NCBI GenBank assembly: GCA_030267965.1
Contig: BRYA01000208.1
Span: 1-37,500, forward strand
Source of the DNA: Triparma columacea
Taxonomy: Eukaryota > Sar > Bolidophyceae > Parmales > Triparmaceae
Length of the DNA: 37,500 nucleotides
Direction of reading: 5' to 3'
The notes under the pieces: model-generated
Told to the model about the DNA's origin: nothing
The model's database searches: none
Seen by the model: only the letters and a program-made list of their open reading frames with translations
Translations under genes and position numbers: made by a program
In this document: in pieces, positions 1-26,931 of the stretch
Layout: each line of letters begins with the position of its first letter
How positions within the stretch are numbered: the stretch's first letter is position 1

Positions 1-70
1 TAACCCTAACCCTAACCCTAACCCTAACCCTAACCCTAACCCTAACCCTAACCCTAACCCTAACCCTAAC
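1..70. repeat. Telomere, (TAACCC)n
   Basis: About eleven and two thirds perfect copies of TAACCC run from the first base, the C-rich strand of a TTAGGG-type telomere reading inward. This makes the window a true chromosome end. Shortly inside, at about 82-92, a single GGGTTAGGG occurs in the opposite orientation. Confidence 0.97.
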
Positions 71-918
71 AGGGTCGTCGGCAGGGTTAGGGAGAGAATT
101 AGAAGGAGGAGTTTGGGAAGATGTTAGGGGGGAGGGAGAAGGGCCAGCAGAGTAGGGCGCAAATAGGTAAATGAAGAGGAGGGCTCAAGGGGGGGTAACA
201 ATTGTGACATCCTGGGGGCGTGACATATGTTACGTGGTTGCAGGGTATGGTTATATAACCCAGAGACGCAAGGTTTTGGTCTAGTCACTTTGTGTTCATT
301 TGAATTAACCATTTAATCGATTCTGTCGTTGTAATAGCAAACCTACTGGTATCATTACATTAATGCTGCCTCCTCCGTCACCCTCTCAAACCCTCACACC
401 CCGGTTTTCACCTCCTTCCCCAACCTTGTTACCTATCCTCTCTCTCAACTGCCTTCCTGATACTTCATATGAACGCACTGGGGTATGTTTGTCGTTTGAT
501 ATCAATTCCCTCCCCTTAAGCCACTCCCCCTAACCCCCTCTCTGCCCCTCCAAATCGTTAAAAAGGGACAAGAATCTTACATTTGGCATCGAGGTCTCGG
601 AGAGGAGGATCTATTTCAATTTATACGCATATTTCGTGTGTAACAGAGGAATATTAATTAAGTTATATTGCTTATAAGCCCGTGAAGTCGTATAATATTG
701 AGAAATACCATGTATAAAAAGGAGAAAGTTGTGAATTTTGAGAGTCGAGTGTCGAGTGTGTTGAAGTCATTTTTACAGTCCTCTTGTTATTTTGCGGGGA
801 TTTTAATACAACCATGGCGGTAAGGATGGATGACATTACACCTATTTCAAAGAAGAAGCGAAATCTCCGAACCCCCGTTAAAAAAATCTAACCCAGAAGA
901 AAAAACATAGGCACTTTA
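71..918. other. Subtelomeric spacer, no gene recognised
   Basis: About 850 bp between the telomere and the degenerate repeat blocks. Only short reading frames of low plausibility occur, such as a 62-codon frame at 124-312 on the minus strand with no recognisable motif. The stretch has pyrimidine-rich tracts (about 365-550) and AT-rich tracts (about 610-720). I see no RNA gene or mobile-element ends. Confidence 0.6.
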
Positions 919-944
919 TTGCTTATTGTATCCACAGACTCCAT

Positions 945-1126
945 CCTACTCCTAATCCTAACGAGAATCCTAACCAGAACCAGAACCAGAATCCTAACCA
1001 GAACCAGAATCCAACCAGAACCAGAATTTAACCAGAGCCAGAATCCTAACCAGAACCAGAATCCTAACCAGAACCAGAACCCTAACCAGAACCAGAACCA
1101 GAATCCTAACCAGAACCTCCATCCTA
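945..1126. repeat. Degenerate telomere-like hexamer array, block 1
   Basis: An array built from six-base units CCTAAC, CAGAAC and CAGAAT (and variants), often arranged as an 18-bp higher-order unit CCTAACCAGAACCAGAAT. The CCTAAC unit is the telomere hexamer and the other units differ from it by one or two bases. The array stays open in several frames, producing spurious QNPNQ-type reading frames that are not genes. Confidence 0.85.
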
Positions 1127-1243
1127 ACCTAAATTTGGAGGCCTTAATTTCAACCGTTTTTATATATTTTTAGTGCAAAATGACCGCAACAACGAGACGC
1201 ATCATATCGTATAACCAAATTTGAATTCTAGCGTACCCTAATC

Positions 1244-1367
1244 TCCACCCTAACCCGAACCAGAATCCTAACCAGAACCAGAATCCTAACCAGAACCAGA
1301 ATCCTAACCAGAATCCTAATCCTAGTCCTAAGCCTAAACCTAACCAGAATCCTAATCCTAACCAGTA
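1244..1367. repeat. Degenerate telomere-like hexamer array, block 2
   Basis: A second block of the same CCTAAC / CAGAAC / CAGAAT hexamers, separated from block 1 by about 115 bp of non-repeat, AT-rich sequence. Orientation matches the terminal telomere. It ends about 70 bp before the 3' end of the first coding gene. Confidence 0.85.
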
Positions 1368-1436
1368 ATAACAACTATACCAAATCAAATAAATTTATCC
1401 TACAAATGTTGCTGCCCTATTAGTCATTCCCCAATC

Positions 1437-7193: not shown

Positions 7194-7804
7194 TAGCCTG
7201 TGAGAGCGCGACGGGAAACGAAAGTGCGGAGGAAAGAGCTGGGTGAGATGCCTCGAAAATACTTAGCAGGATAACGTTGCCGTAAAAGTCAAAAATAATG
7301 TTATTCCCCAGGCCCCAAATGAGAAAATCCTTTTCTCATTTTTTCTCATTTTTCTCCCGAAATCAACCGAGGCGTTGTACCCGAAGGAGGAAAGGTGGGG
7401 AGGCCTCCTTCCTCCCTCCTTCCTTCCTCCCCTCCACCATCCACTCCCCACCTCCACTCCCCCGGGCCCCCGATCCTACCGCGATCCCTCACCTTTACTC
7501 GTTCCTATCCTTCCCACTCCTTGACAAGAGTAATTCCCTGCCCTCCTGCCGGTGCCTCGAGAATGGAGAAGCTTGGTCTGAAGCCCCAAGTACCTCCTCA
7601 GTAAATTATAACGTTGTAGGGCTAATTGAATATATATATGGAAGACTTCGATGTGTACTTCGACGTGTTCAATCGAAAATAAGAGAATTCTCCTCTAAAA
7701 ATAGTTCTCTCAAACCTCATTTATCTTCTTGATTTCCAATAGTAATAATAAATCCACCGTTTGGTTGTGTTAAAATGCATTTGTACCTCAGATGCACGAA
7801 TCCG
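7194..7804. other. Intergenic region upstream of the START/XKR-like gene
   Basis: It carries the 5' flank of the START/XKR-like gene and the 3' flank of the EML-like gene, both on the minus strand. Visible structure: a TTTTCTCA short direct repeat at about 7331-7355, a strong pyrimidine tract at about 7405-7475 and an ATATATAT run near 7630. Open frames here are low-complexity and I do not call them genes. Confidence 0.6.
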
Positions 7805-10800
7805 TTATGCTCGACTACTGCTATGATCATTGTATCTGCCTTTGTAGTCACCATAAGGCTTCTCTGGCTCTTGCAGGATCATCTTGTAGGTGCCATCCTT
7901 CTGCTGCTTGTTGACCCACCCCATTGCTCTTGGGTTGGACTCATTGGCAAACTGGTCCGTCATTGCCCAGGCGGGTCCAACGCCCTCAAGCTCCCTCCCA
8001 TTGTCCCAGCCTCCTTGGGGCTTCCATTTTGTGGCGAGCCTTGGCTTGGGAGGTGCCTGCTTGTCCTCTAGGTGGTCGTTCCTATTCAGCTTCCAAAGCA
8101 TGATTGCCCTGTCCTTGCCCCCTACGCTAATGACGTACCCATCATCGCAGGTGAAGCGAACATTCATGACGTGCGCTGCGTGGCCAAAGTTGACCTTCTT
8201 TGCCGCGCTCTTGGCTACCGCGGGCCATCTCATCAAGTTGACCCCTCCAAAGTCGTCCGCAGTTACAATTAGCTGCCTCCTCTTGCAAACGTCAACGCTG
8301 TTTACGTCAGTTCCATCAGATTCAGGATCCCAGATTCCCATCACCGGAAACCCCAGCACGCATGTCCATGTCTTCCAGTCGGTGTCGGCCTCGAGGGAGT
8401 CGAGTGTGCTGCGATGCGAATTATGACGCCGGTTAGAGAGAAGGATGAGACGAGACGGGTGCATGCAATAATGTTCAAAAATTAAATGCCACGTACCTCC
8501 TAATCTGGACTCCCCTCTTGATGTCCCAGTAGAGTATCTCGTACGCTCCACAGTTGCTCTGGACGATCCTTCCATCCTTGGACCAGTCGAGGTGAGTAAT
8601 GTAACTCGTGTGTCCCTTGAGCCTCCACTTTCTCTGGTACTTCATTACCTTCTGCCACTTCTCCTCGACCCAGACATCGTAAATGTCGACGAAGTTGTCG
8701 TGACTCCCTACAGCGAGCATCGTCCCGTCTGGGCTGTACTTGAGGTCGTCAATGTCCTCCTCGCAATCTTTGATGACGAACTTCATCTTGAGTTCCCCGC
8801 TCTTGAAGAGTTCCTGCCAATCCACGATCAAGACGACACCGCTAAACATTCCGATGGCAATGTGGGATCCGTCAGGGCTGATCGCGACGCTTTTCCCGGG
8901 AGCAAAGAGAGTCCTCCGCTTGACACACCTCATGGTCCGCAGATCCCAGAGGCACAGAAAGCAGTCCTCGCCCACGGTCAAAAAAAGGCTGGCATCGGTG
9001 GGATGAGTGGTTAACCCGTAGACGTGAGCACAGTGCCCAGTCCTCGCCTCGCCTATGGCTTTGCCAGTCATGGGGTTGACCAGTGCCACCGTGCCTCTGG
9101 CCAAGCCCACTGCCAAGGTCACGGCATCCTCTCCGAACTGAGATGAAGTTTCCCCATCTTGGACTTGTTTCCTCCTCAGGATTGCAATATGCTTCAGCTT
9201 GGCTTTTGTCGCTTGAGGACCAACCCATACGTCACCATCCCCCCTCAGCGACCTTCCCTTCTTTGGTCCGGCCAACTTGCTAGGGTCCACGGGCGCTTCC
9301 TGTCTCCTTGCCGTAAATATGGTCTTTCTCTTGCACATTAATGTTGCCTTGTTTTCTAGGCTATCAGGGTGTTCCATGAAGCTGCGACGAACGTGCGACA
9401 TTATAAGATTTTTGACATTAGAACATTTTTGGCGAGCAACCGCTTCAATCATCCTTACCTCAACTTCTTCCTCTCCGGAGGGTTCAAGCTTGTTGACATC
9501 CCCTCCAGCATCTTAAGTTTCATATCCCACGTGTGAAGCATGCCATCATACCCTCCGCTGTATATGTACCTCGAAAGGGGATCAAACGTGATGCTGCTAA
9601 CAGGGTGACCAGCATGTGCTTCGACGAAGCTCATACAAGTCGCCGATGAGTTCCTGAAGAGGTAAACAAAGCCCGAGTTACCGTCGGTGCCGCTCACTGC
9701 AGTAACATCCCCGATGTCCTTCCTGAAATGTCGGGCTGAGGTGAGTATTTTTGTTGCCACAGTGCTCTTTATTGCCGATCTTCCTCCGAATCTTACCTCT
9801 CCTTCGAACAAATGGGCGCGCAGTCGGTGATGGTCTTGGGAAGTGGAGCGTTGCCGAATTTAGCGTTTTGAAATGTCAAAGGACCAACAGGATCTGTTGG
9901 TCGAAGGTTTTCCTTCGTTGGGTGCCACCTCCAAAACTTTAAGTGCTTTCCTTTCCCCGTGGTGACGAGGGCCTGTGTGGTCGCAGAGCTGCTGTTTGTG
10001 CTCCTGGCTGAAGAAGGGGGTGGTGGCGGCATGGTGACTACGAAAAATAAAGTGTGGCAACAGAATTGGTGGTTTTGCTGTGTTAGATACAACAAACGCG
10101 AAGTTTGATGCTCCTAAAGATGCTGAGCCGCCCTGCCCAAAGATGTTTTGTTGATTCTCACCTGTCCTTGACGCTGCCCGACTCCCCCCACCCCTGCTAC
10201 CCCCTACCCTGCTACCCCCTGCCCTGCTACCCCCTGCCCTGCTACCCCCTGCCCTGCTACCCCCTGCCCTGCTACTCCCTGCCCTGCTACTCCCTGCCCT
10301 GCTACCCCCCGTCCTGCTACCCCTCGACGGAGCAGCGGTAACAGGAACTTCGAATCCGCACCAGGCGATGCTCGTCAGCATCGGAGGCGTCCCCGCTTGT
10401 GTGTCCTTCAAACAGAGCAGCTTTGGAATGATTTCGTCCGTCTCTTTGTCCTTCCCGCCTACCAGGTTCCAGATACCGATCTGGTGACAGTCGTCCATCC
10501 CGACGGCTGCAACGTGCTTTCCGTCCCAGCTGAAGGAGATGCCCACTACGGCTCTTTGGAAGATCCCCTGACCTCCGAGCTTGTAGAGGGTTTCGCATGT
10601 ATTGACGTCCCAAATGTAGAACACAGGGGTGTGGCCCATCTGACCGCTCGCGGCCCTCGGAGACTTCTTAATTCCTTTAGCCCTCTCATCGGGTTCAAAG
10701 ACTGTGAGGCACGTAATGTCGTCATCATGTTCCCTGAAGAATGTCTGACTGTTGGTGGAGACATCGTAAACGATGCACACCGCGGCAATGGTGTAGACAA

Positions 10801-12360
10801 GACGGTCGTCGCTGTTGGGAGCGAGATGATCAGGACAAGAGGGTTGGTGTTGATGGGCCACGTGAGCAGGGTTTACATTATTATTTAGTGATAATTGGAA
10901 TGGCGCACGTTCTCACCTTACGGAGTACAAGTTGCACGTGTCGCCGTCGCCCTTGAAGCCCTGGATGTGCTCTAGGTTGAGGTCAGCGACAGGAGCCCTC
11001 CCAGAAAGCGCCACGCTGTTGGTGTCGAACCCTGTGGGAGGAGCGACTGGTGTTCTCGAGTACCTGTAAACAATTCTTCAGAAGGGACGAAGGGGGGTAT
11101 TTGTGGTCAGAACGCGATGTCATGCGACAATGCAGCAACGCCCTGTAGTCTCTCACCTGTTGGGCACCTCGGCTTCGTTAGGTGCGTAGATCCTTCTCTC
11201 TCCTTCTCCTTCCTCATCGAATGGGGCCGTCTTATAGTCTATGTTTCCGGCGTCGCACTTGTCAACCCTGTTCTTATAAACAGACTCAGTGTTTCCGTAC
11301 TTTTTGTTCGCATCAATTAGCTCGTGGGGCGTTGGCTTTGGTGGAAAGAGGGAGTCAATGAAAACTTCGACGTTCCCGTCGGAGCATTGCTTAAAGAGCT
11401 CCTTGAGATCATCCTCGTGGAGGGAGGGCTGGGTTGGGTTCTTGGTGATATGGTTGAAGACCTGCGCGGAAAAGGAAATGGTTGGTTCAAAAGTGCGATT
11501 GAGCAATCGTGCCGTTAGGGTCTCTCTCCCTCTCTCCCTCTCTCTCTCTCACCTTGATCCAAGTTGGTAAGTCAACGTTCGCCCCGTTTCTTTTCCCTCC
11601 GACTCTTTCGAATACTGCGAAGATGTTCTTTCTGGAGACCTCGGCTGTGAGGTCAGAGTCGATTGAAGAGCTGTGGACTGTCATGCGCCTTTGGAGTGGG
11701 AGCTTCTTGCGTTCCTTTGGAACCTGGAAAGGGGGGTGAGTTGTGTTCAATGGTTAGCGACAATCTAGACGACCCAGGGTGCGTTCTTGTATAGTAAAAG
11801 CGAAGTAATACCTAGCCCATATTCCGGTTACCCACCTTGGAGGCGAAAAGACCCTTGACGCCAGCCCTGAACTTAGCCAACCTCTGGTCCAAGCTGCCCG
11901 TCATAGCAATCTGACTCATAGGAAGGACCTCGAAATGCTCCTTCCCAATATCCTCAACGGTTTCGCCACTCTTAACCTTGTTCTCCGCATCCTCAAATCT
12001 TTCCGGCACTCCAACATCAGGATCGAGCATTCTCTCCAAGAAAGCCTTGAGGTTGATCTTTTCGTTCGACCCTTGGCTGTACAAGCTCGCTACTCCCAAA
12101 ACCTCTCCCTCGTCTATTCCCACCAAAAAGCCCCTAAGAACCACGGAAAAGTCCTCCATACCAACGCTCCCTGTCTTTTCAGGGTCAAACTGGTTGAACA
12201 ACTTATTCACCCCGAGTCTCATGTTGCTATACCTGCTAGATAGCTTGGTCCTGACCATATTCTCGTACCTGAGGAATACCACGTCGCTGATGTCCTTCGG
12301 TTTCACCTCATTTCTCATCCTGTTCATCATCGTGGCCCTCTTTTGGCCAGCAGACACCAT
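7805..12360 (-). CDS. EML-type WD40 protein with EF-hand region (1263 aa, 9 exons)
   Basis: Exons, 5' to 3' on the minus strand: 12360-11836, 11723-11553, 11461-11157, 11063-10917, 10811-10162, 10037-9797, 9722-9459, 9381-8497, 8408-7805. All junctions are GT-AG and phase is kept; the total is 3792 nt. The N-terminus is EF-hand-like, with one clear loop at residues 59-70 (DPEKTGSVGMED, degenerate at several ligand positions). Residues about 334-420 match the HELP/TAPE start of echinoderm microtubule-associated protein-like (EML) proteins (LNLEHIQGFKG, VYTIAAVCIVYD, EHDDDITCL). WD40 blades fill the rest (KHLKFWRW, FLCLWDLRT, AIMLWKLN). EML proteins bind microtubules and are common in cilia or the mitotic apparatus. 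The start is the first ATG in the open frame after a stop, 98 bp from the divergent U-box gene. A Gly-Ser-Arg-Ala repeat (residues about 544-590) lies between blades. Confidence 0.87.
10191..10335 (-). repeat. 15-bp coding minisatellite (Gly-Ser-Arg-Ala repeat)
   Basis: About nine copies of a 15-bp unit, read on the plus strand as TGCTACCCCCTGCCC, sit inside exon 5 of the EML-like gene. On the coding strand they give repeated GGSRA. The frame stays open and matches both flanking WD40 parts, so I treat it as an insertion in a propeller loop rather than an intron. Confidence 0.85.
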
Positions 12361-12458
12361 GTTCCAACTGAGTTTTGGCTTCCTTTCCTCGACTTTCAAA
12401 AGTTTGGAGCGGAGCAACCTGCCCCTGTATGAATAAGGAAAACGCTTCTAACAACACG
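12361..12458. promoter_or_regulatory. Compact divergent promoter region, EML-like / U-box genes
   Basis: Only 98 bp separate the proposed ATG of the minus-strand EML-like gene from the ATG of the plus-strand U-box gene, so promoters and 5' UTRs must overlap. No TATA box is obvious. The minus-strand frame is open for about 90 bp upstream of its ATG, but a stop and the absence of another ATG argue against an earlier start without a further exon. Confidence 0.55.
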
Positions 12459-15400
12459 ATGTCTGCACGGTAAGTTGTTGGTTGGGCGGGTATCATAACT
12501 GGGGGGGTCGCCTCCGTGGTAACCTCCTTGGGTCAACTGCCACCCCTCCCCCCCCCCCCCACAAACGAAACCTCCGACCCCAAATGTTCACCCCCCCCTC
12601 GCTCCCCCTCGACTTTCCACCCGGTCGCTGCAGGAAAAATAGTAAACTTTCCCCATCATGGCTTCTAAACGCTGCTCTACTGTCTAGGCCTGCTGATCTC
12701 ACTGCCTTGGTCTCCCTTTCGCAGACCAAGCCTGAGGCATTTGTTGATGAGTTGGATGCGTCGAGCGGTAACATCATGCAGAGGATGGTCGACAAGCTTC
12801 TGAACTCCACCAACCAGATGGTTAGCGACAAGGATACAAAGCTGGATGTTCTCTCCATCCTTTCAAATGTTGCTATAGTGCAGACGGGTGGGACCAGGGA
12901 GGCGGTCAGGTCGGTGCTCCTGTCGGTTTCAGAGTGGTTTGATGAATACCTGGCCAATGAGGAGGGCTCGGGCCGCTACGATGACGACGATATTGAGGCT
13001 GAACCTGAATTGCACAAGGCTATGCTGCTCCTCCTTTGCCGATGCTATGACTACCGCCTCAAGACCGAGGACGTCTTGGAGCTCACCCGTGGTGACAGGT
13101 GAGCATACTTTGCCTAGGAGCTGGTACGGGAAGGCTCTTTGGTGGCGTGCGAATGACGTCGGGTCTCGGTGGCGTTTCGTTTGAGAATACCCCTCAACCC
13201 CTTGAACCCCCCTCCCCTCAACTCCCCCCCTCACCCTCCCCTCCCCTCCACTACCCAAGAACTCTGGCCCTCGAGACGGTTGTTGGGATCCTCGAAGATG
13301 GAGAGACTTACGCTACTGAGCTCGTGCAGCGCGCAAAGCCCGGGTCCGGCCAGGTCGGTCAGTGGGAGCACGAGCTCGTCACGAAACGTCATGAGAAGCC
13401 CCTAATCCTCCAAACCTGCCGGCTCCTCAAAGGCTTTACCTCTGCACCTACGTACTTTTCTGACACTTCTTTGGATGCGGAGATAACTTTGCACGAGGTT
13501 GACGGCTTTACCAGTGAAATTTCCAATCTCCTTGCCATCACTCTGAAGTCGCGGCTCGTAGAGAAGCTCGCCCTCGCCCTTCACGACGTGCTCTTCTCCT
13601 CAGACTATGACGAGTCGGACTCAGAAGAGGATGACTGGGACTCCGAGGACGATGACTGGACCGCCGAGAAGGCTACCCTTCGTCAGCAGAAGGCCCTTCG
13701 TCAGCTAGAACGCGGCCTTTTGGATGGTTCTGACCACAGGTCCATTTCCTCGGGTGAGTGCGACAAACAAATATGACAACGCGTATGCTTGGTTTGTATC
13801 CCTTCCTAACCCACACCCTTAGTCTTTGCCTTCTTGCAAAACCTCTACTCCTTCGCTGGACCTGAGCGCGCTGACGTTTACCGACAGCATCTACTCGCCG
13901 ATACCCTGCTTGTTCCGCGCCTCGTCCTTCCTTACCTTAATCGCTGCGTCGCCGCGGCAAATCTGCTGAGCAGGAGAGCGGAGACCTACGAAAGTCTCCT
14001 CTCCAACAGGGGCGAAGGCAAGGATGACGGGGAAAGTGGCGGGCTAGACAATGACGTTGCAATGGCCTTGGATGACATGAACCTCGTGGCCGGCTGCGCC
14101 GCCGCCCTGCGTGTCCTCATCATCGCTTCCTTCAGGGCTCCTCCAACTCGCTTCGTCCTCGGCCTTCTTCGTCGCCTCAACCCTACTGCATCCCTCCTCC
14201 GTGCCGCGGTATTCGTCGCGCGCCATGACTACCTCTTTGCTCTCCTCTGTCTTCTCAATGTCAACATGGGGGCGCTCGACTTGTCGATCCGCTCAAATTT
14301 CAGCTCGAAGAAGAAGAAGACTGACAACGAGGATGCTGACGGTGATGAGGGGGAGGGCGAGGGCGAGGGCGAGGGCGAGTACGAGGAGCTCACTGACGAG
14401 AACGACGAGAATCTTGTTGAGGCTTACTACGCGCACTCGCTGCTGCACGATATGGCCTCGGTCCACGCCATGATGGACGCTAACGCACAGCAAAGAGTTA
14501 TGAACAGGTGAGCCTTTGATTGGTTGGTCGGTTTGGTCCATTATTCGATATGGTCGGTTAAGCGTTGAAGCGGTTGAGGGGTCAAACACAGGTCAAGAAG
14601 AAGGCAACGCGCTCGCAGTCAATTTAACTCCTTCCATCCGTGATACCCTTCCCTCATCTCCCTTCCCTCATCTCAGAGTCCTTGTCGCCGGGGCCCTCCC
14701 CGTGTCCAGGGACACAAGTAGCTTTGCTGCCGTCAAGTCAATGCTCGAAGGGGGGTCCGCGTCCGGGCAGGCATCGTACGTTGCAGCCCAATTCGGAAAG
14801 GACTTTGACTCCGCGGCGGGAGGGAAGCAGATGATGGGGGCTACCATGGACGAGGACATGTTCAGGAATAACTTGAGGGCAGAGGCCAAGCAGCGCTCGT
14901 CGGCCGCCCTCACCAATATTGGGGAAAACAGCGCCGCCTCCCCAACCGCTGAGTCCAAGGACGAGGAGAAGGAAGAAGTTGACGAGGAGGAGAGGGCAAG
15001 GAGGAAGAAGGAGAAGAAGGAGAGAAAGAAAAAGAAAAAGAAGAAGGAGAAGAAGCAGGCCATGGGCCTTCTCGGGGATCTCCCCTCGTTAGACGGGGGG
15101 AGAGGCAGCGGCTCTGACAGAGGCAGCTTCCTGCAGCTCGACCTCGAACTTCCAGAGAAGATGAAGAAGATGAATTTGGCAACAAAGAGTGGCGATGCCG
15201 TTCCCAGGAAGGGCGGCCTAAAGGCAAATGAACTCACCCCTAGTAAGTACTTCCACGAGGAGACTGGGGTACCTTCTGAGTTCGCCTGCGCAATCAACGG
15301 CCACCTCATGAAGGAGCCAGTTCGCACTCCTGGAGGGATAGTCTTTGAGAAGGACACCATCCTTCTCTGGATCAAGACGCGGGGCCAAGTGTGCCCAATC

Positions 15401-15559
15401 TCCGGCGATGTGCTCACCGAGGACATGCTCGAGGAAGACAAGGACCTTGGCATCGAGATTCTGCGCTGGAACATAAAAAAGACGGCAATGGGCGGACAAA
15501 GGGACTCTGTCATCGGAATTGGCGGCGGGGAGGTAGAAGACGATGTCTACGATTTCTAA
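12459..15559 (+). CDS. U-box domain protein, likely E3 ubiquitin ligase (827 aa, 5 exons)
   Basis: Exons: 12459-12469, 12688-13098, 13260-13753, 13823-14507, 14677-15559. Total is 2484 nt with phase kept at every GT-AG junction. The first exon is only 11 nt (ATG TCT GCA CG) and the spliced start reads MSARPADLTALVS. Residues 1 to about 480 are leucine-rich helical repeats of HEAT/armadillo style, broken by acidic linkers (about 270-285 and 460-480). A long Lys/Glu stretch (residues about 680-705) follows. The C-terminus (about 750-805) is a U-box: FACAINGHLMKEPVRTP, a VCPISGD turn, then a closing helix. U-box proteins recruit E2 enzymes without zinc and the helical part would bind substrate. 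Substrate unknown. The family beyond 'U-box' was not recognised. Confidence 0.85.
12470..12687 (+). other. First intron of the U-box gene, with poly-C run
   Basis: A 218-nt intron between the GTAAGT donor after the 11-nt exon and the TCTAG acceptor. It contains a 13-base C run at about 12548-12560 and more C-rich sequence downstream, so the opposite strand is G-run rich close to the divergent promoter. Confidence 0.75.
14349..14380 (+). repeat. (GAGGGC)n microsatellite in coding sequence
   Basis: About five hexamer copies in exon 4 of the U-box gene encode alternating Glu-Gly in an acidic linker between helical repeats. Length is a multiple of three, so the frame is kept. Confidence 0.85.
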
Positions 15560-16029
15560 TAGAATAGCAATTAATGCATAGCACGTTTGTTTAATGCGTG
15601 AGAAGGTGACCAAGCTTTTTTACCAGGAAGTGACCAAACAACAGTTCCCTTTGAAAATTTTCTCGTGGCGTGCTCTGTATCCCGGGACCGGGCCCGGAGG
15701 CCTGTCGGGATGAGCGCACGCCTTACTTCCAATTAAAATAACTTGACCAAAATTGCTTCGTTTCTTTTTTCTCATATGCCATTTTCCCCTTATCAAAACC
15801 CAAGTCCGAACGCAGGCTAGGAAAAATGGAAAAATCCTTAAAACCCCTTCTATTACTGCTTCATCCTCTCACCTCCTCCTTCCTCCCATCGCAAAGTAAT
15901 CTTATCTAGGCTGTCCTCCGTACATCGACATTTCTGTCGATTCTCCGCTCTCACGGAAACTGTGTAACAGGATAACAGCAACCAAGCAACCCATCCCATC
16001 CCACACATCGCTCGGATACTTCACATATC
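15560..16029. other. Intergenic region between U-box and IP3R-like genes
   Basis: 470 bp holding the 3' flank of the U-box gene and the 5' flank of the channel gene, both on the plus strand. A GC-rich imperfect inverted repeat stands out at 15667-15722 and is listed separately. The remainder is AT-rich to pyrimidine-rich. No TATA box or RNA gene is evident. Confidence 0.6.
15667..15722. repeat. GC-rich inverted repeat / hairpin
   Basis: Outer arms GGCGTGC (15667-15673) and GCACGCC (15716-15722) pair, then ATCCCG (15679-15684) with CGGGAT (15706-15711), enclosing the palindromes CCGGGCCCGG and AGGCCT. It begins 108 bp after the U-box stop codon in otherwise AT-rich sequence. It may be a 3' UTR hairpin, a boundary element or a miniature-element remnant. 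Confidence 0.65.
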
Positions 16030-19000
16030 ATGAGCTCTGCCATTTCTGACAAAGGCGAAACTGATGTTTCTCCGCCTCTTGAAGACAATTCATTGCACGG
16101 CTCGGCGACTCCGGCTCCTCCAAACCCACCTTCCCATAAGGGGTTTGGTGCAGAAAAGCCAAAGATCCGCCGGTTTTCTTCGGGCCCTGTGCTACCATCT
16201 ACAGGACGCGTGAGCCCAATGGCCCAAGATGGCGCAGGTGACAAGGAAAACCTTGAGTCTGTCAAGTTTGGAGATATTATCTACCTTCGAAGCTCGTCCA
16301 AGCTCGAAGGAGGGGATAAAGGCTTCGTATATGCCGATCCATGTTTTGGCAAGGTGGGGTTCATCAAGAATCAGGTCTCTACCGCTGAGGAGCTCTCGGA
16401 GTTCCAGTCCTGCCTTTTTGTCATCCATCCCCAACTCCTTTACGAATCTTCCGCCACTCGCAAAGAGCTGCGACGCCGTTCATCCTTTCAAGGAGGCACT
16501 GCAGAAATGGATATGGTTAACATCCGTATCGAGCAGGAGAAAGCTCAGAACAAACAGACTGTCGAGCGCTGCAAGAAGTGCGACGAGAGTGTGTTGTACG
16601 GCCAAGTAGTGCAACTGATGCACGTTGCCACCGGAAAGTACCTCATGGGTGATCGGCACACTTCACAGTGTCAGCGCGACTGCCTTGCCCTCTCTGTTGG
16701 CCAAGGCGACGAGGTGAGCACTGGAAAAGGCAAAGCGAAGGAGCACAGCAGTGACACCTACTAATCCATCACCCCCTCTCCTTTTTTTTTTTTTTTTTCT
16801 TTTTTTTTTTTTTTAATAGCTTTGCCACTTCCGCATCACACCTCGCTTCCGCGTGCGCCAGGAAGGCTCGCCGGTCTACTATTCAGACCAGATTCAACTC
16901 CTCAACGAGCGCTTGGACGGTTACGCTGTTCACACGACACACGAGCGGTACCTGGATGAGAACGACAGTGAGGGTATGAGGGAGATCGGAAATCAATCAA
17001 CCATCTACGAACTGAACCTATCCTCCATCAAGACTTCCATGAAGATTTTTAAGTTCACCCGTTACGATGCGTTAGACCCTGACGCCTTAACCTCATCTTC
17101 AACGCTTGTGAGATTTTTTCATCCAGAGTCAGATTCCTTTCTCTCTGCCTCGTGCTCCTTCGTAAAGCACAACCCCGTCGCCTACCTAAGAAAGATCCCC
17201 TCAGAGACTAACCCAAGCGCCAATGAGTGCATGTCTGCGAAGTCTATTTTCGTCTTCGAGTACCAGACGAGGATGAGGGGCGGTGCAGTGAAATGGAATT
17301 CGAACATTCGCATCAAACATATCCCAACCGACAGATACCTCACCGTCGACCCTGAGCCCCAGGAAGGCAACTATCACTGCAACCTCGTGAAGGAGCGAGA
17401 CGTTGCAATTGAGCGCACGCTTTTCTCTCTCGTTCCCACTGACGAGCAAGGTAGTACTGTCCCAGAGGCTCGCGTGTCTATGCGGCTTGAACACACGGTC
17501 AAACTCCCGAACGGTGAAGAGCGTGTCGTCCACTTTTCCTCTATCCCAAAGCGGTTTCGACAGCAGAGCAAGATGGGGAAAGAGAACCGTGAGGTCGTCT
17601 TCGTGCCGTCCCGGCCCGATAATGATGCTGTCCTTCTCATGCCTGTTGACCCTGTGACCGATAGTGACTTCGTCCACAAACTTAAGAAGGCCCTATCCAT
17701 GATCCCCTTCACGCGGTGGTTTACCAACAGAATCGTGAAACTGGGGAACGAGGAGGAAGGGGGCCTGAAATGGGACGATATTGAGTCAATGGAACAGCTT
17801 CTCGTCGATCTTATAAAGTCTTGCGGTGAATTCAGCGGCAAGGTCGAACGCAGGTTCGAAGTTATGACGATGGAAGATGCAAAGGCACCAGAGGCCAAGG
17901 AGGATTCCTCAGTTATGTTTCAGACTATTGCGTGTGACGTCAAGCTCATGGATGTTATTTTTGGTCTTGTGGCCTCTCCGACACTCACAGATGGGGGGGG
18001 GCTAGACATGACATGGGACGATAAGCACAGGAGATTCAAGGACATTAAGTTCGAGAAGATTGGGTTGATTGCAACGCTCGGGTGGAAGGCACTAAGGACG
18101 TTGTTCGCGAAGAACAGGAGAGGTAAGAACTGGTCACCCTTCGTGCGCAATCTTAGTCTCCCTCTGAGCTTCAGAAAAGAAACAAAAACAAAAACAAACC
18201 AACACTCGCCTTCCCTCGTCTTTGCAGCGGAGAACTACTTCGCACAACACAAGGCGTGGATCAATCCAGGGATCATCAAACAGATCCCTTACAAAGTGGG
18301 TGCAGCCCGTGCGTTCGAAAAGCTCATCTCTGACAACGTCAGCTTGCTCGAAGAAGAAGTTGATGAGACCATCATTCAAGCGTTTATGAGCTTGATTTCC
18401 AATCACGGGCCTGAAGAGCGACTCATGAACTTCTTTGCATCCATTTGCACGGTGCAGTCCAATCCTATCAAGTCCAATCAAGAGGAGTGCCTCAACCTCC
18501 TCTTCTTGGACAAAGATAATTACGGCTCCATGTTTTTGCACACGTTTGAGGATCCCAGCCCTGGAGTCAAACGGGTTCCCTGGAAACTTTCAAAATTCAG
18601 TGACAATTATCCTGAGGAATTCTTAGGGAAGAGCGTCCTGGACGATGGGGGGTTCAAGCCGGTCATAGTCTCGTGGGCAAGCATGAAGAGCATGAAAGGG
18701 CGAGCCAATGGCGGCAATCTTCTGACTCATGACTTTGTCATTGACGGCGAGCAAGTTTGCGAGGTTACGGAATTCTGCAAGTATGTTTCGAAGACGAGCG
18801 CCGAGATGGAGGACGAGTGCTTCACCAAGTTCGGCGATAATGATACATTTGACAGCGAAGATGAGAGCGAGGACGAGTCGTCCGAGCTGCCGGGTCGTCG
18901 AAAGCTAATGTTACAGTGGGAGCTGAGCCAGTACTACGTAGCCCAAATTAAAGTATTTGCCAGCATGTGCCAGGGTCGATCGTACAACTGCATTGCTCAT

Positions 19001-22000
19001 CTTTCCAAGGCTTTTCCGTACGCGATGCTCATGCACTTGGTGTCCAACGATAAGCTCGCTTACGAGGTGCGCACTGCATTCTGCATGTTGCTGCAGGTCT
19101 TGTGGGTCGACCGCTATCCCCACGCTCCTAACTGCGGAAGACCTTCTCTCCCGAACCTGGTATGGGTCTATAACGACCTTAAAAAGACGAATGTCGACGA
19201 GGAGGGCGCATTGCTCCACTTCTCGCTCGGAGATGGTCATCCTTGTCTCGACTTGGAGTTTTCGGCGAAGAATTACGAGTTCTTGAGCATGAAGTCCCAC
19301 ACGAAATTCTTTCTTCTTCGAGACTTCCTCGTCGGATGGTTGGCGTCCCTCAACGGGGCTCAGACGATAGGGAATAAGTCAAAGAACGGTAAGAAAGGGT
19401 CTTGGCTTTTTGCTTTTTGTTTTTGCAAATTTTCGCTCGAATTAGCTCTAATCTCCCCACTTCTTCTCGCAGACATGTGCCTAATTGTTTTGATGGTAGC
19501 TGCGGACCTCATCAGCTTTGGCTTTTTCAGCACTCGCAAGAAGATCGTTGAGATGTGCATTCCCCTCTTGGAGGTGCTTGATGGAAGGGCTGACATCACA
19601 ATTGAGTTGCAATCAGCTGTTGTAATCTTGAAGGAAGAATTGTCCAAGCGCAGGACAACAGCATCCAACATCCTTAAGCCTAAGTTGCCTGCAATCGATC
19701 TTCCCTTCGGTCGTAGTAACTCCGAAGATGGAGTTGAAATGATGACCAATCCAATGATGTTGAACCAATCTTCTTCCACTTCTTCCAAACCCATGAAGGG
19801 TGACGACGACCGCCGTTTCGGCAATAGATCCGGAAGTAGACTTTCCATGAAAAGCCGAGGCTCTGTGATGAGCAGACAATTAGAAAATAGAACGTTACTT
19901 CAAGTCCCTCCATTAATGGGGGGCGTCAACGTCCACGATCTCTGTACAACGGGCAAGGCAACCCCAGAATACCTTGACCTTTTGGTCAGACGAGAAATTG
20001 GAAGCAGCAGGTGGTCTATGGACTCCGATAACGTACGCCTCATGAACTGCAAGATGAACATGCTGAGAATCCTGGGGTCTGTCGCCAATCTCCGAGTCAA
20101 CCACCGACTCGGCGACCTCCTCCTGAGCTTCAAGGAGTTCTTAGAGGAAGGAAAGCAAATCTTGGACGATGAGAATGGGGTTACCGATGACTTCTATGAT
20201 AGGTTCGAGACCCTCTTCACAAAATCAGCTCACGATGGGGACTACGATGGGACGAAACTCGACATTAACGCCTTCTCTCTCACGCCACTTGATGTCGTGT
20301 GCGTTGACTTGATGCTCTACGAGTCCGATTCCCTTTTTGAGGCTGCTCTTTCCTTCATGAGCCGGAGGTGGGGTCAAAGGAAGGCGCTTCTGGGTTTCTT
20401 TCCGCAAGTCTCCCTTCTCATCGATCAGTCGTTGCCCGTTTTCGGGTCCTTTCGTAGACTCGATTTAGATCTGCAGCAATTGAGGTATTACGTTCGCAGC
20501 TACAACATCTGGGGGGTCCAAAGTGGAGCGTCAGGCTTCGACGAGGACACAAGAAAGAGAACGAACGAGATTTTGAACCGTCTACTGCGATTCGTCTACA
20601 GCCCGAGCGAGGACCTGAGTAAAGATGGGGAACCTACAGAATCTAGGAGGATGAGCAGCCACAAGAGGACAAGCTCTGTGTACAAGATCAAGAGTGTCGG
20701 GGGCAGCTTGAAAGCCCTTCCACCCTCTTTCTCGTCATCTCTCAGGTTTGGGAAACGGGCCAAGGGAGAGAACAATGTTGCAGGAGGTGCTCCGAGGAAT
20801 CGGAGAGTCAGCGTCGAGGACATGCAGGAGATCAACCCGGACATTAGCGACGAGAGAATATTCCAGCTCGAGAAGAACTTGCCGCCAAGTGCTGTTTTAG
20901 GGAGCTACGGCGTCGACGTTGTTGCAAACCACCTCCATCAAGATATCCTCAGGAACATGGGGATGGCTAGGGAAGTGTTGTTCCACGCACTCGGGATTGA
21001 TTACTGCATCATGGAAAAGGTTCTTAATGACGACCAAAAAGCAGACCCAAGATTTGCGGGTAACGTACAGAAGTCCAAGGACTGGCTTTATGAGGTCCTT
21101 AGGAAGACAATTTTTGTTCTTAGCGCTTTCGCCGACGGCAGCAACAAAAACCAGCAAGTTCTCTTCTCAAAGCTTGATATATTTAGGGAGAGGCTCGGGG
21201 ACAAGGTGACTGGAGATGATAGCGAAGAGTCGCTCTTCTGTTGGGATGTTGTAATCAGTATCTTCCAGGGGAACGAGAAGTTGGTCAGGGTCTGTCCGGA
21301 ATCTCTCGTAGCACAGTACACGACCTTGCTTGCAGACTCAATGAACGCCAAGAACCGATGCAGGCTCTTGGATTTCTTTATCAATATTTGCAATCCCACT
21401 GACAACGGGAAGGCCATAGTTCGTAACCAAGACCTCTGCTTAAAGTTCCTCTTAGGAAGTTTCGAGACCTATGGCAAACCCCTTTTGAAGTACCACTTCG
21501 CAGAAAACATTGGAGGTGCAGACCTGGACGAGACCGAGACTGAGGCCCTCGAAGTTGCAAAATGTTTACAAGTCTTGGCGTACTGCAGCAAGGACAAGAA
21601 TAACCTCGCCGTAGCAAAATGCCAGGCGCAGCTGACTATCGATGAAGTTTGCGACCTGTACAAAGCTGACAAGAAAGGCGACGAGGAACTCACAGTAGCG
21701 CAGGGTTTGTACTTCAAGAGTACTATCATGGACTTCTTGCAAAGTTGCTACGTCGACACTCCACTACGTGACAGAAACTTGGAGCGAATGGAGAAGTTCT
21801 GGTTTGTGCTCGAAGATGCCACTACGATATTGATCGAAGGATGGAAGGGAGATCACTGGAGTTGCGAGGTTGAAGTGCCTTCGCTTACTTTGAACGAGTC
21901 CTTTGGTGGCAACGAACCCACGGGTGATAGCGAGTCAGAGTTTATCAGAGAGAAGTTCGCAAAGTCAGTTCTCAACTTAGCTGCTTCCTTCTTCTCTTCC

Positions 22001-25000
22001 AAAAATGGCATTCTAGGGGACGCCGGAGGCTGGCTCCAAGACAAAAATCACTTCACCTACAAGACATGGATAGCTGTCAGTAACTGTTGCAAATTCATCA
22101 GTCGAAGTAATGGTGACACAGACTTCGTAATCACGAGAGCCTCCAAGGACGCTCTTGCTAACATCGCGGTGCAAATTCTTGATGACTTTGAGATCACCGT
22201 CGATCCCATGGCTGCGACTGGCATGTTCATGCCTCGTTCAAAGAGTTTCGCCAATGAGCAATTGTACAGGGCGAGGAGCGAGACCAGGGCAGCGCTGACA
22301 AGAGAAGAGCGAATGATGGCGAGTACAAAGGAGGAGAAACAGTTGTATTTGTTTGAGGTGGCTAACGCTCTTGCGACTAGTAAGAGGGCGCAAGATGCGG
22401 TTGGAAAAAGAGACCACGAATTCATTGAAGCTCTGGAGCAAATGGAGAACGTGACGGATCCCGAGGATGCAGAGTATACCGAGCTCGCAACGGACTTCAA
22501 GGAGAATCATCAATATGACACGGGTGTTGGCAATGATGACGAGGATGAGGATGAGGATGAGGATGAGGATGAGGATGACGTTGAAGGCAAACGTGACAGT
22601 GATGCTGCCAGTGCTAGAGGAGTCGAGAAGAATGAGGTATCACCAACCAACAGTGTGGCTGGAGAAGGCAAGGCGATAAAGCGAAAGAGAAGGCAAAGTG
22701 GCGTCAAGCCTTGGTTGAGGAGGAGGGAACGAAAGTTGCGAAAGCTTTGCGCCAAGTTCTTGAAGATCTCAGAAGGCATTCCAATGATTTCTTGGGTCCT
22801 TTTTCTCGTTGCTGTTGCCACGATTACGACCATATACCAGATGCTTACTTATGACGTCGAGTTCTTGATCCATATTGAGTTTGCCATCTCGATGTACTTT
22901 GTATGCGAGATATTGCTCAAAATTTTCTCTTTCATGGTGGTGGATGGAGATATCGATAACTTTTGCTTCAATGCACTTAACATGGTGGACTTCGTTGTCG
23001 TTGCGATAGACGTCTTGCTCCTCGTTGCTGAAGGAGAGGGCGAGGAGTCGGGGAAAGGAGGGCTTCTCAAGAGCTTGAGAAGCTTGCGCGTAATTAGGCT
23101 GATTAGAATGACGAGGGGAATGAGAGCTATGAATTTGATGAAAGCGCTGAAAAACAATGATAAGGAGGAGAAGAAAGCTTTGGCCAAGGCCGACCCCCGC
23201 TCAGTTAAGATCAACTTCGACATGATTTCAGGGCGATTCCTGAAATACCTCAAGGATAATGCGGGTAGGGAGATGGACCTCCAGAAGCTGGCGGCACTCA
23301 ACAGAGTGTTGACCGTGCTTGTCATGTATTTGAAGAAGTACAGGGACCGAACTGAAGTCAAGGAGGACGATAGGAGCGAAGAAGAGAGAGGGGATCCGAA
23401 CGATGAAGAAGGTATCATTCTGTGGGAGGACGAGTTGAAGAACAGGCTTGACACTCTCAGGGCAAAGCAGACGGCATTCCTTGCTAATGACGCCCCTTCC
23501 GTCATCATCTACATGGTAGCAAACACACTCGACGCTGACATTCTCAAGTTGGCTTTCGAGCTCGCCACGGAGTTGCTGAGAGGAGGAAACCGCGAGGTGC
23601 AGGACTTGTTCCTCAAGGAGCTTAAGTTCAGCGACGCTGATGGTATCTTCTTCAGCGTCGTCCGAAAGACTCTGCGAGATTCGGCTCAAGCTCTAAAACT
23701 TTACAGACTGTCAAGACAAGGACTCAAACAACGAGGCAAAGGTAGTGGAACGAGTGAGGATCAGGCTGGGAGGGGGACTGATCCGCACACAGTGACACTT
23801 GTTGCTGAGATAAGGAAGTGCAATGCTATGCTCGACTTTCTCACCCAGCTGTGCGAGGGTCATAACTTGGATAGTCAGGTGAGGGTCCGGCGAGCGGAAG
23901 AGTAGCGTGCGACGCAAAGCCCTAAAAGGGTCTCAGAAAGGGTTAGAGGACGGCGAGCGGAAGAGTAGCGTGCGACGCAAAGCCCTAAAAGGGTCTCAGA
24001 AAGGGTTAGAGGACACCAGGTCGGGATGAGGAAAAGCGTCGTTTCGTGAGAAATCTAACCCTTAACTGCCACTAAATTACCTTTTTGCGCTGCTCGTGAC
24101 AGAACTTACTGCGAGTGCAGGAGAAATCAGTCCAGAGTTTCAACATCGTTGAGGAGGTGTGCGACCTACTTGGCCAGCAAGGAAAGAATTTGCAAGTTTG
24201 TCGTGAGTTTGACGATATCCAAGCTGAGTGCACCATTGCGAGTATAGAGTTCCTGGTCGAGGTCTGCCAAGGTCCTTGCGCGATGAATCAGAACCTGATT
24301 TGTTCGAACCAGAAGAGCGTCAGCGTGTGCAAGAATCTGCTCACTTGCAACTTCAAGGACAACATCTTGAAAAATCCTATTTTGAAATACTCCCTTTACG
24401 CGCAGAGTGCAATGTTAATCGCCTCTCTCTTGGAGAACAGGGAGGACGGCTACTGCCATAAGTACCTTTGCGAACAGATCCCACAAAGGATGATCGAGCA
24501 GCGCATGACGATGATCGAGAAGATCAAGAAAAACTTGAGGAAAGAGGAGGGCGCAAGGGATAAAATGAGGAGGCGTGGGACCATCGCTGCGGGGATGGAG
24601 TTCCTGCCAATGGGGAAATTGGTGGGGGGGATGGTGCTGGGGATGGAGGAGGGGAGGGGTAAGAAGAAGTTCGAAAAGATTGACACGAGGTAAGCACCAT
24701 AAACGTGATGAGCGAAGATAACAAAGCTACCAAAACTGCAACCGAACTAAAATAATCCTGCTCTCCCGTGCGCTCACTGCAGCACGATTACAAAGCTCGT
24801 CGACGTCCTCGATTCCGAAGCCCGTGCGCTATTAGAAGTTAAGCAGGAACTTTCCAACGCCATCGTCATGGCCGGTGACAACGTAGACATGACGCTTTTC
24901 AAGCAGCTGGAAGGAAGAGGGATGGTTTCTGTGGAAATCAACTGGCACGGCAAAACTGTCAAGGCTTTTTTCAACAAGCCAGTGGAGTTCAAAAGTTTGA

Positions 25001-26931
25001 GCGAGCTGTCTAAGAGGGACTTCATGAACAACGTGGATTTGACGAGTAGTGAGGGAAGGATGAAGGCATTGATCGATGAGGTCGACGAATTGAAGGACGG
25101 GATGAGGTGAGCGAGCTGCTGAAAGGGGTTGAAGTCACAACAATATGTATTTATGTTGCCGACGATATTCAAACGTACCCACTTAACTCAATTTATCCCC
25201 TCTCTCACTTGGCGATTTACTTCGCCCGTCACAGGTTCAGACACTGGCTTAGCACCTTCTGGCTTTACAAAGCAATGAGGGAGGGTTACAGCCCCATCAA
25301 GAAGCTAGTCTTCTTCTTGGTAGTGCTCTTGAATTTCAACGTGCTCTGGTCGGAGTTCGACGATGACGAGGACGCCGTCGGAAAGGTCAAGTTCCAGGAG
25401 GAGAGCGTTAAGATTACCGAGCGCTTGAGCAAGCTTGTAGCAATTGGATATTGCATCATCATCATATACGTTGTTGTCAGCTTCTCTAGTTTGAAGTATA
25501 GAGCATCCGTGAGGAAAAGACAGGTGCTTCTCAACTACAAGGTCGAGCACATGAACTGGCATATTCTTCAAATGACATTAAACGCAGTTTTGGGTTACAG
25601 TGGCTTCTGCTACATTTTCAGCATAATGAATAAAAGTTACGTTTTCAAGGATTACGCCACTCTAGGGTTGAAAGTCCTCTTCGCAGCCTCCCCCTTTCTC
25701 CTTCGAAAGCTGTACAACGTCCCGCAATCAAGACTCATGCAAAACTACTGCCATTTGTACGAGGTGCTGATGGATCCGCCACTAAGGTGAGTATTGCGAA
25801 AAGTTCAAGGAATGAATACATCACACACATTGGAATCAACTCACAAGTGCCATCCTATCTTGTCATTTACTCTCGCAGAAACCACATCCTCCTTCTGGTG
25901 ATAATTGTCGCCGGGAACAGCAACCCGATCTTCTACTCTATGGCGCTCCTAGACATTCTGACAATGTCATCCGCCCTCCAGAGCGTTTTGCAGGCCGTTA
26001 TAAAGCCCGCGAACCAGCTGTCCCAGACCCTCTTCCTCTTCGTGATTGTCATCTGCATCTACACAGCTGTGGCATACTACTCTTTTGGGGTATTATCTTT
26101 CGGCAACCTCGATGACGACGCTCCTGATGAGGTAAGTGCGGGTAGGGTAAGCAAATCAAAGCATCCTCAAATCCTCACCTATCACCGCTACAATTTTTCG
26201 CAGGCTTACGAGGACAAATACTGTACGAGCTTGATGAGCTGCTTCATCTACACACTGTACGTGGGCATTAGGAGCTCCGACATGGCCGAGGTGCTCAAGG
26301 ACTACAACGACTATGACAGTTATGGTGCCGAGGACAAGATGGGCACCAGGGTGCTCTACGACCTGTCCTTCTTCCTAATCCTCGGCGTGCTCCTATTCAA
26401 TATGGTGAGCGGTATCATTTTGGACACGTTTTCGCAACTCAGAGGTGAACAGGAGGACAGGCAGAACATCGTTGACAACGAGAGTTTCGTATCGGGTTTG
26501 AGCAGGGGAGAGTACGAGGAGCACGGGCCGGAATTCAGGTAGGCAACAGGAAACTTAACGCTGAGAGTGTCGAGGAATTATGACTTGCTCTGTCACTTCT
26601 CACCCCGTCTAACCCCTCCTTACACTCCACACTTAGTTTTGAGGAGCTCAACAAGAAGGACCAGAACGTGTGGAATTACTTCTTCTACATCGTCTACATT
26701 CTCGAGAAAGACCCAAGCTCCTACAACGGGTGCGAGAGCTACGTCGCTGAGTGCCTAGAGAAGAACGAAATCTCGTGGGTACCGACGAAGACGAGCTGGA
26801 AGCTAGAAAATGGTGGCGGAAGCTCCAGAGAGAAAAGCATGGATGAGTGGTTCGAGGAGTTGGCAGGGAAGGTGGATGAGATCGGGAAGAAGGTCGGATA
26901 TGATGATGAGGATGGTATAGAGGGGGCGTAA
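16030..26931 (+). CDS. IP3 receptor-like Ca2+ release channel with embedded voltage sensor (3299 aa, 10 exons)
   Basis: Exons: 16030-16713, 16820-18122, 18228-19388, 19473-23878, 24103-24689, 24783-25106, 25235-25786, 25879-26131, 26204-26538, 26637-26931. The total is 9900 nt, all GT-AG, phase kept. Domains in order: IP3R N-terminal suppressor-like region (about 77-228), MIR region (about 310-500, e.g. RIKHIPTDRYL at 392-402), first RIH domain (about 640-830), second RIH (about 1540-1760), an Asp/Glu run (about 2069-2085), a four-helix voltage sensor (about 2152-2276), RIH-associated domain (about 2385-2630), six membrane segments (about 2845-3169) with pore loop near 3099-3121, and the conserved C-terminal helix (NVWNYFFYIVYILEKDP). 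IP3 receptors release Ca2+ from the ER. The sensor insertion, the altered filter (GIRSSDMAEVL) and the lost zinc ligands are unusual. Introns at 18123-18227 and 19389-19472 are stop-free multiples of three, so a track may show them as coding; flanking homology favours removal. Confidence 0.92.
16780..16816 (+). repeat. Long poly-T tract at intron acceptor
   Basis: The first intron of the IP3R-like gene (16714-16819, 106 nt) ends with over 30 near-continuous T residues interrupted by one C, followed by AATAG. It is an extreme polypyrimidine tract compared with the other introns in the window. Confidence 0.85.
22539..22580 (+). repeat. (GATGAG)n coding microsatellite
   Basis: Hexamer copies in exon 4 of the IP3R-like gene encode an alternating Asp/Glu run just before the voltage sensor. 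The run could bind divalent cations loosely, but this is only an inference from charge. Confidence 0.85.
22780..23155 (+). other. Voltage-sensor domain (S1-S4) inside the IP3R-like protein
   Basis: Encoded wholly within exon 4, residues about 2152-2276. S1 is the hydrophobic run starting MISWVLFLVAVATITTIYQM. S2 carries F2192-x-x-E2195-x-x-x-K2199, the charge-transfer-centre pattern of cation-channel sensors. S3 carries N2219-x-x-D2222 and a second Asp at 2229. S4 has K2249, R2252, R2255, R2258, R2261, R2264 and R2267, seven basic residues exactly three apart. No pore helices follow; the chain returns to soluble IP3R regulatory sequence. It most resembles sensors of NaV/CaV-type channels. Four helices keep both ends on the cytosolic side, so the topology of the rest of the receptor is unaffected. 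Confidence 0.93.
23888..24013 (+). repeat. Perfect 63-bp tandem duplication within an intron
   Basis: Two identical 63-bp copies (23888-23950 and 23951-24013) start nine bases after the GTGAG donor of the intron at 23879-24102. Each begins CGGCGAGCGG and ends GGGTTAGAGGA. The intron (224 nt) is the longest in this gene, and removing one copy brings it to 161 nt. Identity of the copies implies a recent event. Confidence 0.95.

What the first reader, a model, noticed from the sequence alone, without database searches (positions are those of the whole stretch)
22780..23155. Complete voltage-sensor domain embedded in an IP3 receptor-like channel
Seen: within one open 4.4-kb exon, the IP3R frame runs from the second RIH region through four hydrophobic helices with S2 F-x-x-E-x-x-x-K, S3 N-x-x-D and an S4 with seven basic residues at strict three-residue spacing (2249-2267), and straight on into the RIH-associated domain and the six-helix IP3R pore. 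Established: IP3R/RyR channels have six-helix pore units whose S1-S4 lack a gating-charge S4, and voltage sensors occur in NaV/CaV/KV channels, Hv1 and voltage-sensitive phosphatases. Inference: this is a ligand-gated Ca2+ release channel whose regulatory solenoid is coupled to membrane voltage, or a sensor of organelle membrane potential. Four extra helices keep topology intact. I know of no described IP3R with this architecture.
Basis: partly seen in the sequence, partly recalled or inferred. Interest (0 to 1): 0.95.

Follow-up and report, generated by a model that had tools for sequence, protein, structure and literature searches.

The report
Calcium-release channel with built-in voltage sensor
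A genome that is likely from a parmalean alga (the sister group of diatoms) encodes IP3-receptor-like channels with a complete voltage-sensor domain inserted in their regulatory arm, an arrangement predicted to let membrane voltage control calcium release directly.

Summary
A ten-exon gene (16030-26931, +) encodes a 3299-residue IP3-receptor-like protein with a complete S1-S4 voltage-sensor domain (VSD) at 22778-23155, between the second RIH domain and RIH_assoc. It is no artefact: VSDs occur in 4 of the 6 RIH_assoc-bearing loci of this genome, in a 60%-identical ortholog, and, at a second position in the arm, in 8 of 8 relatives listed by a search whose query held the VSD, two of them named Triparma proteins. 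In paralog C147 one uninterrupted 2552-codon frame holds VSD, RIH_assoc, pore and C2. Across 13 VSDs the S2 acid-Phe-acid-base positions, both S3 aspartates and the seven S4 positions are conserved (one gapped row at each of two S4 positions), against a mean top-residue frequency of 0.51. The Ca2+-activation glutamates are kept; six of nine IP3-contacting residues are changed. Most likely mechanism (inferred): voltage moves S4, which acts on the Ca2+-sensing ARM3 and opens or primes the pore; voltage may have supplanted IP3. I found no description in the library searched. Function untested.

The parts
16030..26931 (+). IP3R-like gene, 10 exons (16030-16713, 16820-18122, 18228-19388, 19473-23878, 24103-24689, 24783-25106, 25235-25786, 25879-26131, 26204-26538, 26637-26931), 3299 aa
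   Evidence: Spliced model without internal stops, GT-AG introns; exon 4/5 junction confirmed by ortholog P0006
16255..16692 (+). Ins145_P3_rec (N-terminal beta-trefoil), first part
   Evidence: Pfam E 8.5e-11
17105..17536 (+). MIR domain
   Evidence: Pfam E 1.7e-11
20966..21457 (+). RIH domain (best of two stretches)
   Evidence: Pfam PF01365 E 4.2e-21, 2 stretches
22535..22579 (+). Acidic Asp/Glu linker before the VSD
   Evidence: read from the sequence
22778..23155 (+). Voltage-sensor domain S1-S4
   Evidence: Ion_trans S1-S4 half E 4.3e-11; AF2 model and fold matches to VSDs; conservation in 13 VSDs
22778..22846 (+). S1 helix (limits from the model)
22859..22945 (+). S2 helix with E2185, F2192, E2195, K2199
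22973..23038 (+). S3 helix with D2222, D2229
23063..23155 (+). S4 helix (two segments in the model)
23069..23125 (+). Seven gating-charge positions K2249, R2252, R2255, R2258, R2261, R2264, R2267
23456..23707 (+). Solenoid segment aligned, through ortholog P0006, with human ITPR3 1721-1804 (weak, domain E 0.02-0.03)
23855..23857 (+). Glu equivalent to IP3R1 E1978 of the Ca2+-activation site (LCEGHN)
   Evidence: alignment; role from PMC9663519 passages
24103..24339 (+). RIH_assoc domain (main part)
   Evidence: Pfam E 5.5e-11
24259..24261 (+). Glu equivalent to IP3R1 E2042 of the Ca2+-activation site (VEVCQGPC)
25235..26538 (+). IP3R-type pore module (Ion_trans S5-S6 part found by Pfam), without an i+3 basic array of its own
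26264..26284 (+). Selectivity-filter stretch GIRSSDM in place of the GGGVGD type
   Evidence: alignment with ITPR2

Best explanation
The gene encodes an IP3-receptor-family channel with a complete S1-S4 voltage-sensor domain inserted in its solenoid between the second RIH region and the Ca2+-sensing part of ARM3, and the sensor is predicted to gate Ca2+ release by moving S4 against that region. Shown: the architecture, its recurrence in relatives, the conserved charge-transfer centre and gating charges, the kept Ca2+-activation glutamates, an IP3R-type S5-S6 pore, and about 100 residues between S4 and the first stretch alignable with ARM3. Inferred: VSD and pore lie in the same membrane (a four-helix insert leaves both flanks cytosolic, and one polypeptide is inserted into one membrane); depolarisation moves S4 and shifts ARM3, opening or Ca2+-priming the pore; in this class voltage and Ca2+ have largely replaced IP3 as the trigger. 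It would work like CaV1.1 coupled to RyR1, with sensor and release channel in one polypeptide.
Confidence: 0.6

Rival explanations
1. The VSD is a membrane anchor or lipid- or partner-docking module that fixes the long solenoid to the membrane; its charges are kept for fold or binding and it does not gate the pore.
For: It lies between solenoid parts, away from the pore in sequence, behind an acidic and basic linker; two different insertion points in two classes.
Against: The charge-transfer centre and the S4 positions are conserved in 13 VSDs while most other positions are not; a plain anchor would not need regular i+3 charges.
Confidence: 0.2
2. The channel works in the plasma membrane (or a vacuole or vesicle membrane) as a voltage- and Ca2+-gated Ca2+ entry channel, not as a store-release channel.
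For: A sensor is most useful where a large membrane potential exists; the filter of the window protein differs from the release-channel type.
Against: Animal IP3Rs are located mainly in internal membranes (PMC11085791 passage); nothing here gives the location of this one.
Confidence: 0.13
3. The VSD is itself a permeation path (proton channel of Hv1 type or a gating-pore current), separate from the pore.
For: Pore-less VSDs can conduct; the IP3R VSDs group with two other VSDs of the same genome that are not CaV domains.
Against: S1 of the window VSD has no acidic residue in its core (Hv1's S1 aspartate is recalled), and gating-pore currents are usually seen when S4 charges are missing (PMC10651576 abstract), whereas these S4s are full.
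Confidence: 0.05
4. Assembly or annotation artefact: two neighbouring genes, a chimeric contig or a pseudogene.
For: The gene model is predicted here, without transcripts; a near-identical database allele is split by its predictor inside S1.
Against: Open frame, ten clean exons; three further paralogs, ortholog P0006 and 8 class B relatives with VSDs.
Confidence: 0.02

Closest known systems
Inositol 1,4,5-trisphosphate receptors (ITPR1-3; ARM3 Ca2+ sensor E1978/E2042 in IP3R1)
   Same: Ins145_P3_rec, MIR, RIH, RIH_assoc, IP3R-type S5-S6 pore and C-terminal region; Ca2+-site glutamates
   Different: An extra four-helix VSD in the solenoid; most IP3-contact residues changed; filter GIRSSDM instead of the GGGVGD type; C-terminal FICG motif reads FVSG
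CaV1.1 coupled to RyR1 (excitation-contraction coupling; PMC13095418 passages)
   Same: A CaV-like voltage sensor would act on an IP3R/RyR-superfamily pore
   Different: One polypeptide instead of two proteins in two membranes; Pfam reports no RyR-specific domains here
SLC9C1/sNHE, voltage-sensing phosphatase (VSP) and VSD-cyclases
   Same: A VSD joined to an effector other than its own S5-S6 pore; the IP3R VSDs group with the VSD of an exchanger-like protein of the same genome
   Different: The effector is an IP3R-family channel, and the VSD is inserted inside its solenoid

Membership tests
IP3 receptor family | Domain order Ins145_P3_rec, MIR, RIH, RIH_assoc, Ion_trans pore | tested here: met
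IP3 receptor family | IP3-coordinating residues (T267, R269, S274, R504, K508, R511, Y567, R568, K569) | tested here: not met
   Window protein: S274 and R568 identical, K569 to Arg, the other six changed; the 504-511 part rests on a weak alignment (residue roles). So it belongs to the family by domains and pore, but is not shown to be an IP3 receptor by ligand
IP3 receptor family | Ca2+-activation site glutamates E1978 and E2042 | tested here: met
   alignment of ortholog P0006 with ITPR3 (equivalence of ITPR3 and IP3R1 numbers partly recalled) and the same residues in the window
IP3 receptor family | Selectivity filter of GGGVGD type | tested here: not met
   GIRSSDM in the window, GIRAGDM in C329, TFRFSDI in C39; GGIGD in C147, P0002, P0009-P0011 and C66
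Voltage-sensor domain | S2 F-x-x-E/D, S3 Asp and S4 basic residues every third position | tested here: met
   13 VSDs
Voltage-sensor domain | Four-helix VSD fold | tested here: met
   AF2 model, mean pLDDT 68; the 50 rows shown by VIA-align 2 are all VSD-bearing chains as far as their titles tell; Foldseek best E 4.5e-3; moderate confidence
Voltage-sensor domain | Moves charge with membrane voltage | not testable with these tools
   needs gating-current recording
Hv1 proton channel | Acidic residue in the core of S1 | tested here: not met
   S1 read; the motif is recalled
CaV/NaV/Kv channels | VSD followed directly by its own S5-P-S6 pore | tested here: not met
   VSD is followed by solenoid; the Ion_trans match stops after S4

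The most novel reading that the evidence does not exclude
A one-molecule excitation-to-calcium-release coupler: in class A of these channels the voltage sensor has taken over from IP3, so that a membrane potential change plus cytosolic Ca2+ opens an IP3R/RyR-type pore directly, and pore-less voltage sensors entered release channels at two different points of the solenoid during algal evolution.
Probability: 0.4. Interest if true: 0.94.

Novelty: new variant of a known kind. Interest (0 to 1): 0.86.

Why it matters
In skeletal muscle, voltage controls store release through two proteins, CaV1.1 and the ryanodine receptor. Here the sensor and an IP3R-type channel are one polypeptide, which would be a new way of linking electrical state to Ca2+ signals and would give voltage sensing a place in IP3R gating. 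It also bears on the algae: diatoms are reported to lack IP3Rs, and their fast Ca2+ waves may need a novel channel type (PMC11085791 passages), while this likely parmalean genome has six IP3R-like loci, four with voltage sensors. The isolated VSD and the full channel can be tested directly by gating-current and mutant recordings.

Tried and rejected
Considered and rejected: chance S4 pattern (in a scan of the three forward frames of the six loci, the only i+3 array of five or more basic residues in a hydrophobic setting inside a channel frame is the VSD's own in C206, C39, C329 and C147, and C66 and C192 have none; four other hits, C329 nt 455 and 12966 and C147 nt 19932 and 19933, lie outside the channel frames); separate genes; Hv1 membership; ordinary VGIC; the VSD lying in the plasma membrane while the pore lies in the ER (rejected by inference).

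Led nowhere or against: a search of long proteins with the class A segment gave only 3 hits, class B protein P0002 and two bird CaV channels, so no full-length class A relative was found in that database at that sensitivity. A first AF2 model of VSD plus ARM3 from three rows was poor (mean pLDDT 52, VSD blocks 28-46) and was not used for fold search. In the whole-protein alignment behind the second model rows P0012-P0014 are partly misaligned; the counts come from the separate VSD alignment. The 8-of-8 count of class B VSDs comes from a query segment that held the VSD, which favours relatives with one. The VSD tree has few well-supported branches (4 of 21), and does not decide whether classes A and B had one origin or two. 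The hydrophobicity scan did not cover the N-terminal frame of C66. PDB search with P0007 gave no IP3R match. A viral-contig scan found no relative. NCBIfam gave nothing.

Literature: ten searches, eight aimed at the architecture or at IP3Rs and VSD fusions in protists (asked for Triparma, for IP3-site residues); no listed title or abstract start describes an IP3R with a VSD. Passages only were seen of PMC11085791, PMC7016017, PMC7399828, PMC12223298, PMC10328945, PMC9663519, PMC10651576, PMC13095418 and PMC7935092. In the two VSD reviews (PMC10651576, PMC13095418) 'ip3' and 'inositol' occur 0 times as word starts in the main text. Most subscription papers, and preprints, are not covered.

Full report
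What is there. The window is part of contig C206 of a 37.85-Mb assembly. The region encodes a ten-exon gene on the plus strand, 16030-26931, with canonical introns and a 3299-residue product. Pfam finds, in order, Ins145_P3_rec, MIR, RIH (two stretches), an Ion_trans match that covers only profile positions 8-117 of 241 (S1-S4), RIH_assoc, and the S5-S6 part of Ion_trans. The C-terminal module aligns with ITPR1-3 and RyRs (best E 1.3e-30). So the channel has its own IP3R-type pore and, in addition, a separate S1-S4 domain at 22778-23155. The coordinates, the exon and the S4 numbering of the finding are right.

Is it real and not an artefact? RIH_assoc finds six loci in the own genome, one of them (C192) below the family cut-off. 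VSDs lie in four: C206 (window), C39, C329 and C147. C66 and C192 show no S4 array, and the solenoid frames that were scanned for hydrophobic segments (one of C66, three of C192) have none. In C329 one 1079-codon frame holds an EF-hand pair, the VSD and RIH_assoc; in C147 one 2552-codon frame holds the VSD (from codon 360), RIH_assoc, pore and C2. P0006, an unnamed protein 60% identical to the query, joins VSD and RIH_assoc in one frame and confirms the window's exon 4/5 junction.

Two architectures. In class A (C206, C39, C329, P0006) the VSD lies about 100 residues before the stretch that aligns with ITPR3 1721 (weak alignment). ARM3 of IP3R1 is given as R1582-H2192 in PMC9663519, so the insertion is near the ARM2-ARM3 border or in the first part of ARM3. 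In class B (C147 and relatives) the VSD lies between the positions equivalent to ITPR2 882 and 1047, inside the helical domain (E693-L1102 in IP3R1). Search with the C147 segment, which held the VSD, listed 8 proteins, all 8 with an S4 array: Triparma retinervis TrRE_jg12234 (89%), T. laevis f. longispina TrLO_g8656 (74%), and six unnamed proteins at 26-82%. The species of the window is therefore likely parmalean; its 37.85 Mb lies within the 31.0-43.6 Mb of eight parmalean genomes but equals none of them (PMC10328945 passages). The remote members (26-34%) suggest that class B is older than Parmales, but their hosts are unknown. In a tree of 24 VSDs both classes fall together with an exchanger-like protein (C35) and an unnamed multi-helix protein (C418) of the same genome, apart from nine CaV-type domains (100/99). 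This suggests a portable VSD lineage; whether there was one origin or two is not resolved.

How it most likely works. ARM3 of IP3Rs holds the Ca2+ sensor (E1978, E2042; PMC9663519 passages). Both glutamates are present here (LCEGHN, VEVCQGPC). S4 leads, through about 100 residues that a poor model shows as mostly helical, into this region. S4 movement would thus act on the Ca2+-sensing region and, through it, on the pore. IP3 contacts: of nine positions named in PMC9663519, the window protein keeps S274 and R568, has Arg for K569 and differs at six; the alignment around 504-511 is weak. C39 and C329 differ again at the positions compared, and the class B protein P0010 keeps the bases at 504, 506, 508 and 511. 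I therefore propose that in class A voltage and Ca2+ have largely replaced IP3. This step is inferred. Which membrane holds the channel is unknown; the VSD and the pore should share it.

Comparison with the known. Known VSD effectors include channel pores, Hv1, VSP, sNHE and cyclases (PMC10651576, PMC13095418 and PMC12223298 passages; in the first two 'ip3' and 'inositol' do not occur as word starts). Skeletal muscle couples voltage to release with two proteins, CaV1.1 and RyR. The present protein belongs to the IP3R family by domains, pore and Ca2+ site, with two features not met in class A (IP3 contacts in the window protein, canonical filter). It is a new variant of a known kind; that it works like a voltage-gated release channel is likely but untested.

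Noticed in passing
P0007 (end) and P0005 (start), near-identical alleles of window 22670-22860: Two near-identical predictions, each on a contig of 11323 bp, break inside S1 where the window is continuous; it looks like an intron in S1 that the window lacks.
   Followed up: partly
window 23879-24102: Intron 4 contains a perfect 63-bp tandem duplication (23888-24014); a search of the own genome found only this copy of the intron.
   Followed up: yes
L018:6508-9744 (C329): An EF-hand pair sits upstream of the VSD in this paralog, so Ca2+ and voltage inputs may be adjacent.
   Followed up: partly
window 25235-26931: Class A channels have filters GIRSSDM, GIRAGDM or TFRFSDI and FVSG/FISG where C147, P0002 and P0009-P0011 have GGIGD and F[VI]CG: a divergent pore mouth and loss of a cysteine of the C-terminal finger.
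   Followed up: partly
L012:673-2571 (C418): A 633-codon multi-helix protein with a VSD that groups with the IP3R VSDs; no Pfam family beyond Ion_trans.
   Followed up: partly
L010 (C35): A Na+/H+-exchanger-like protein with a VSD and a cyclic-nucleotide-binding-like region, apparently sNHE-type (read by eye).
   Followed up: no
window 1437-7262 (-) and C147 15028-19281 of the reversed 1-20000 stretch: Similar large proteins (START domain, and a sub-threshold XK-related match, in the window copy) lie near an IP3R-like gene at both loci; likeness of the two judged by eye.
   Followed up: partly
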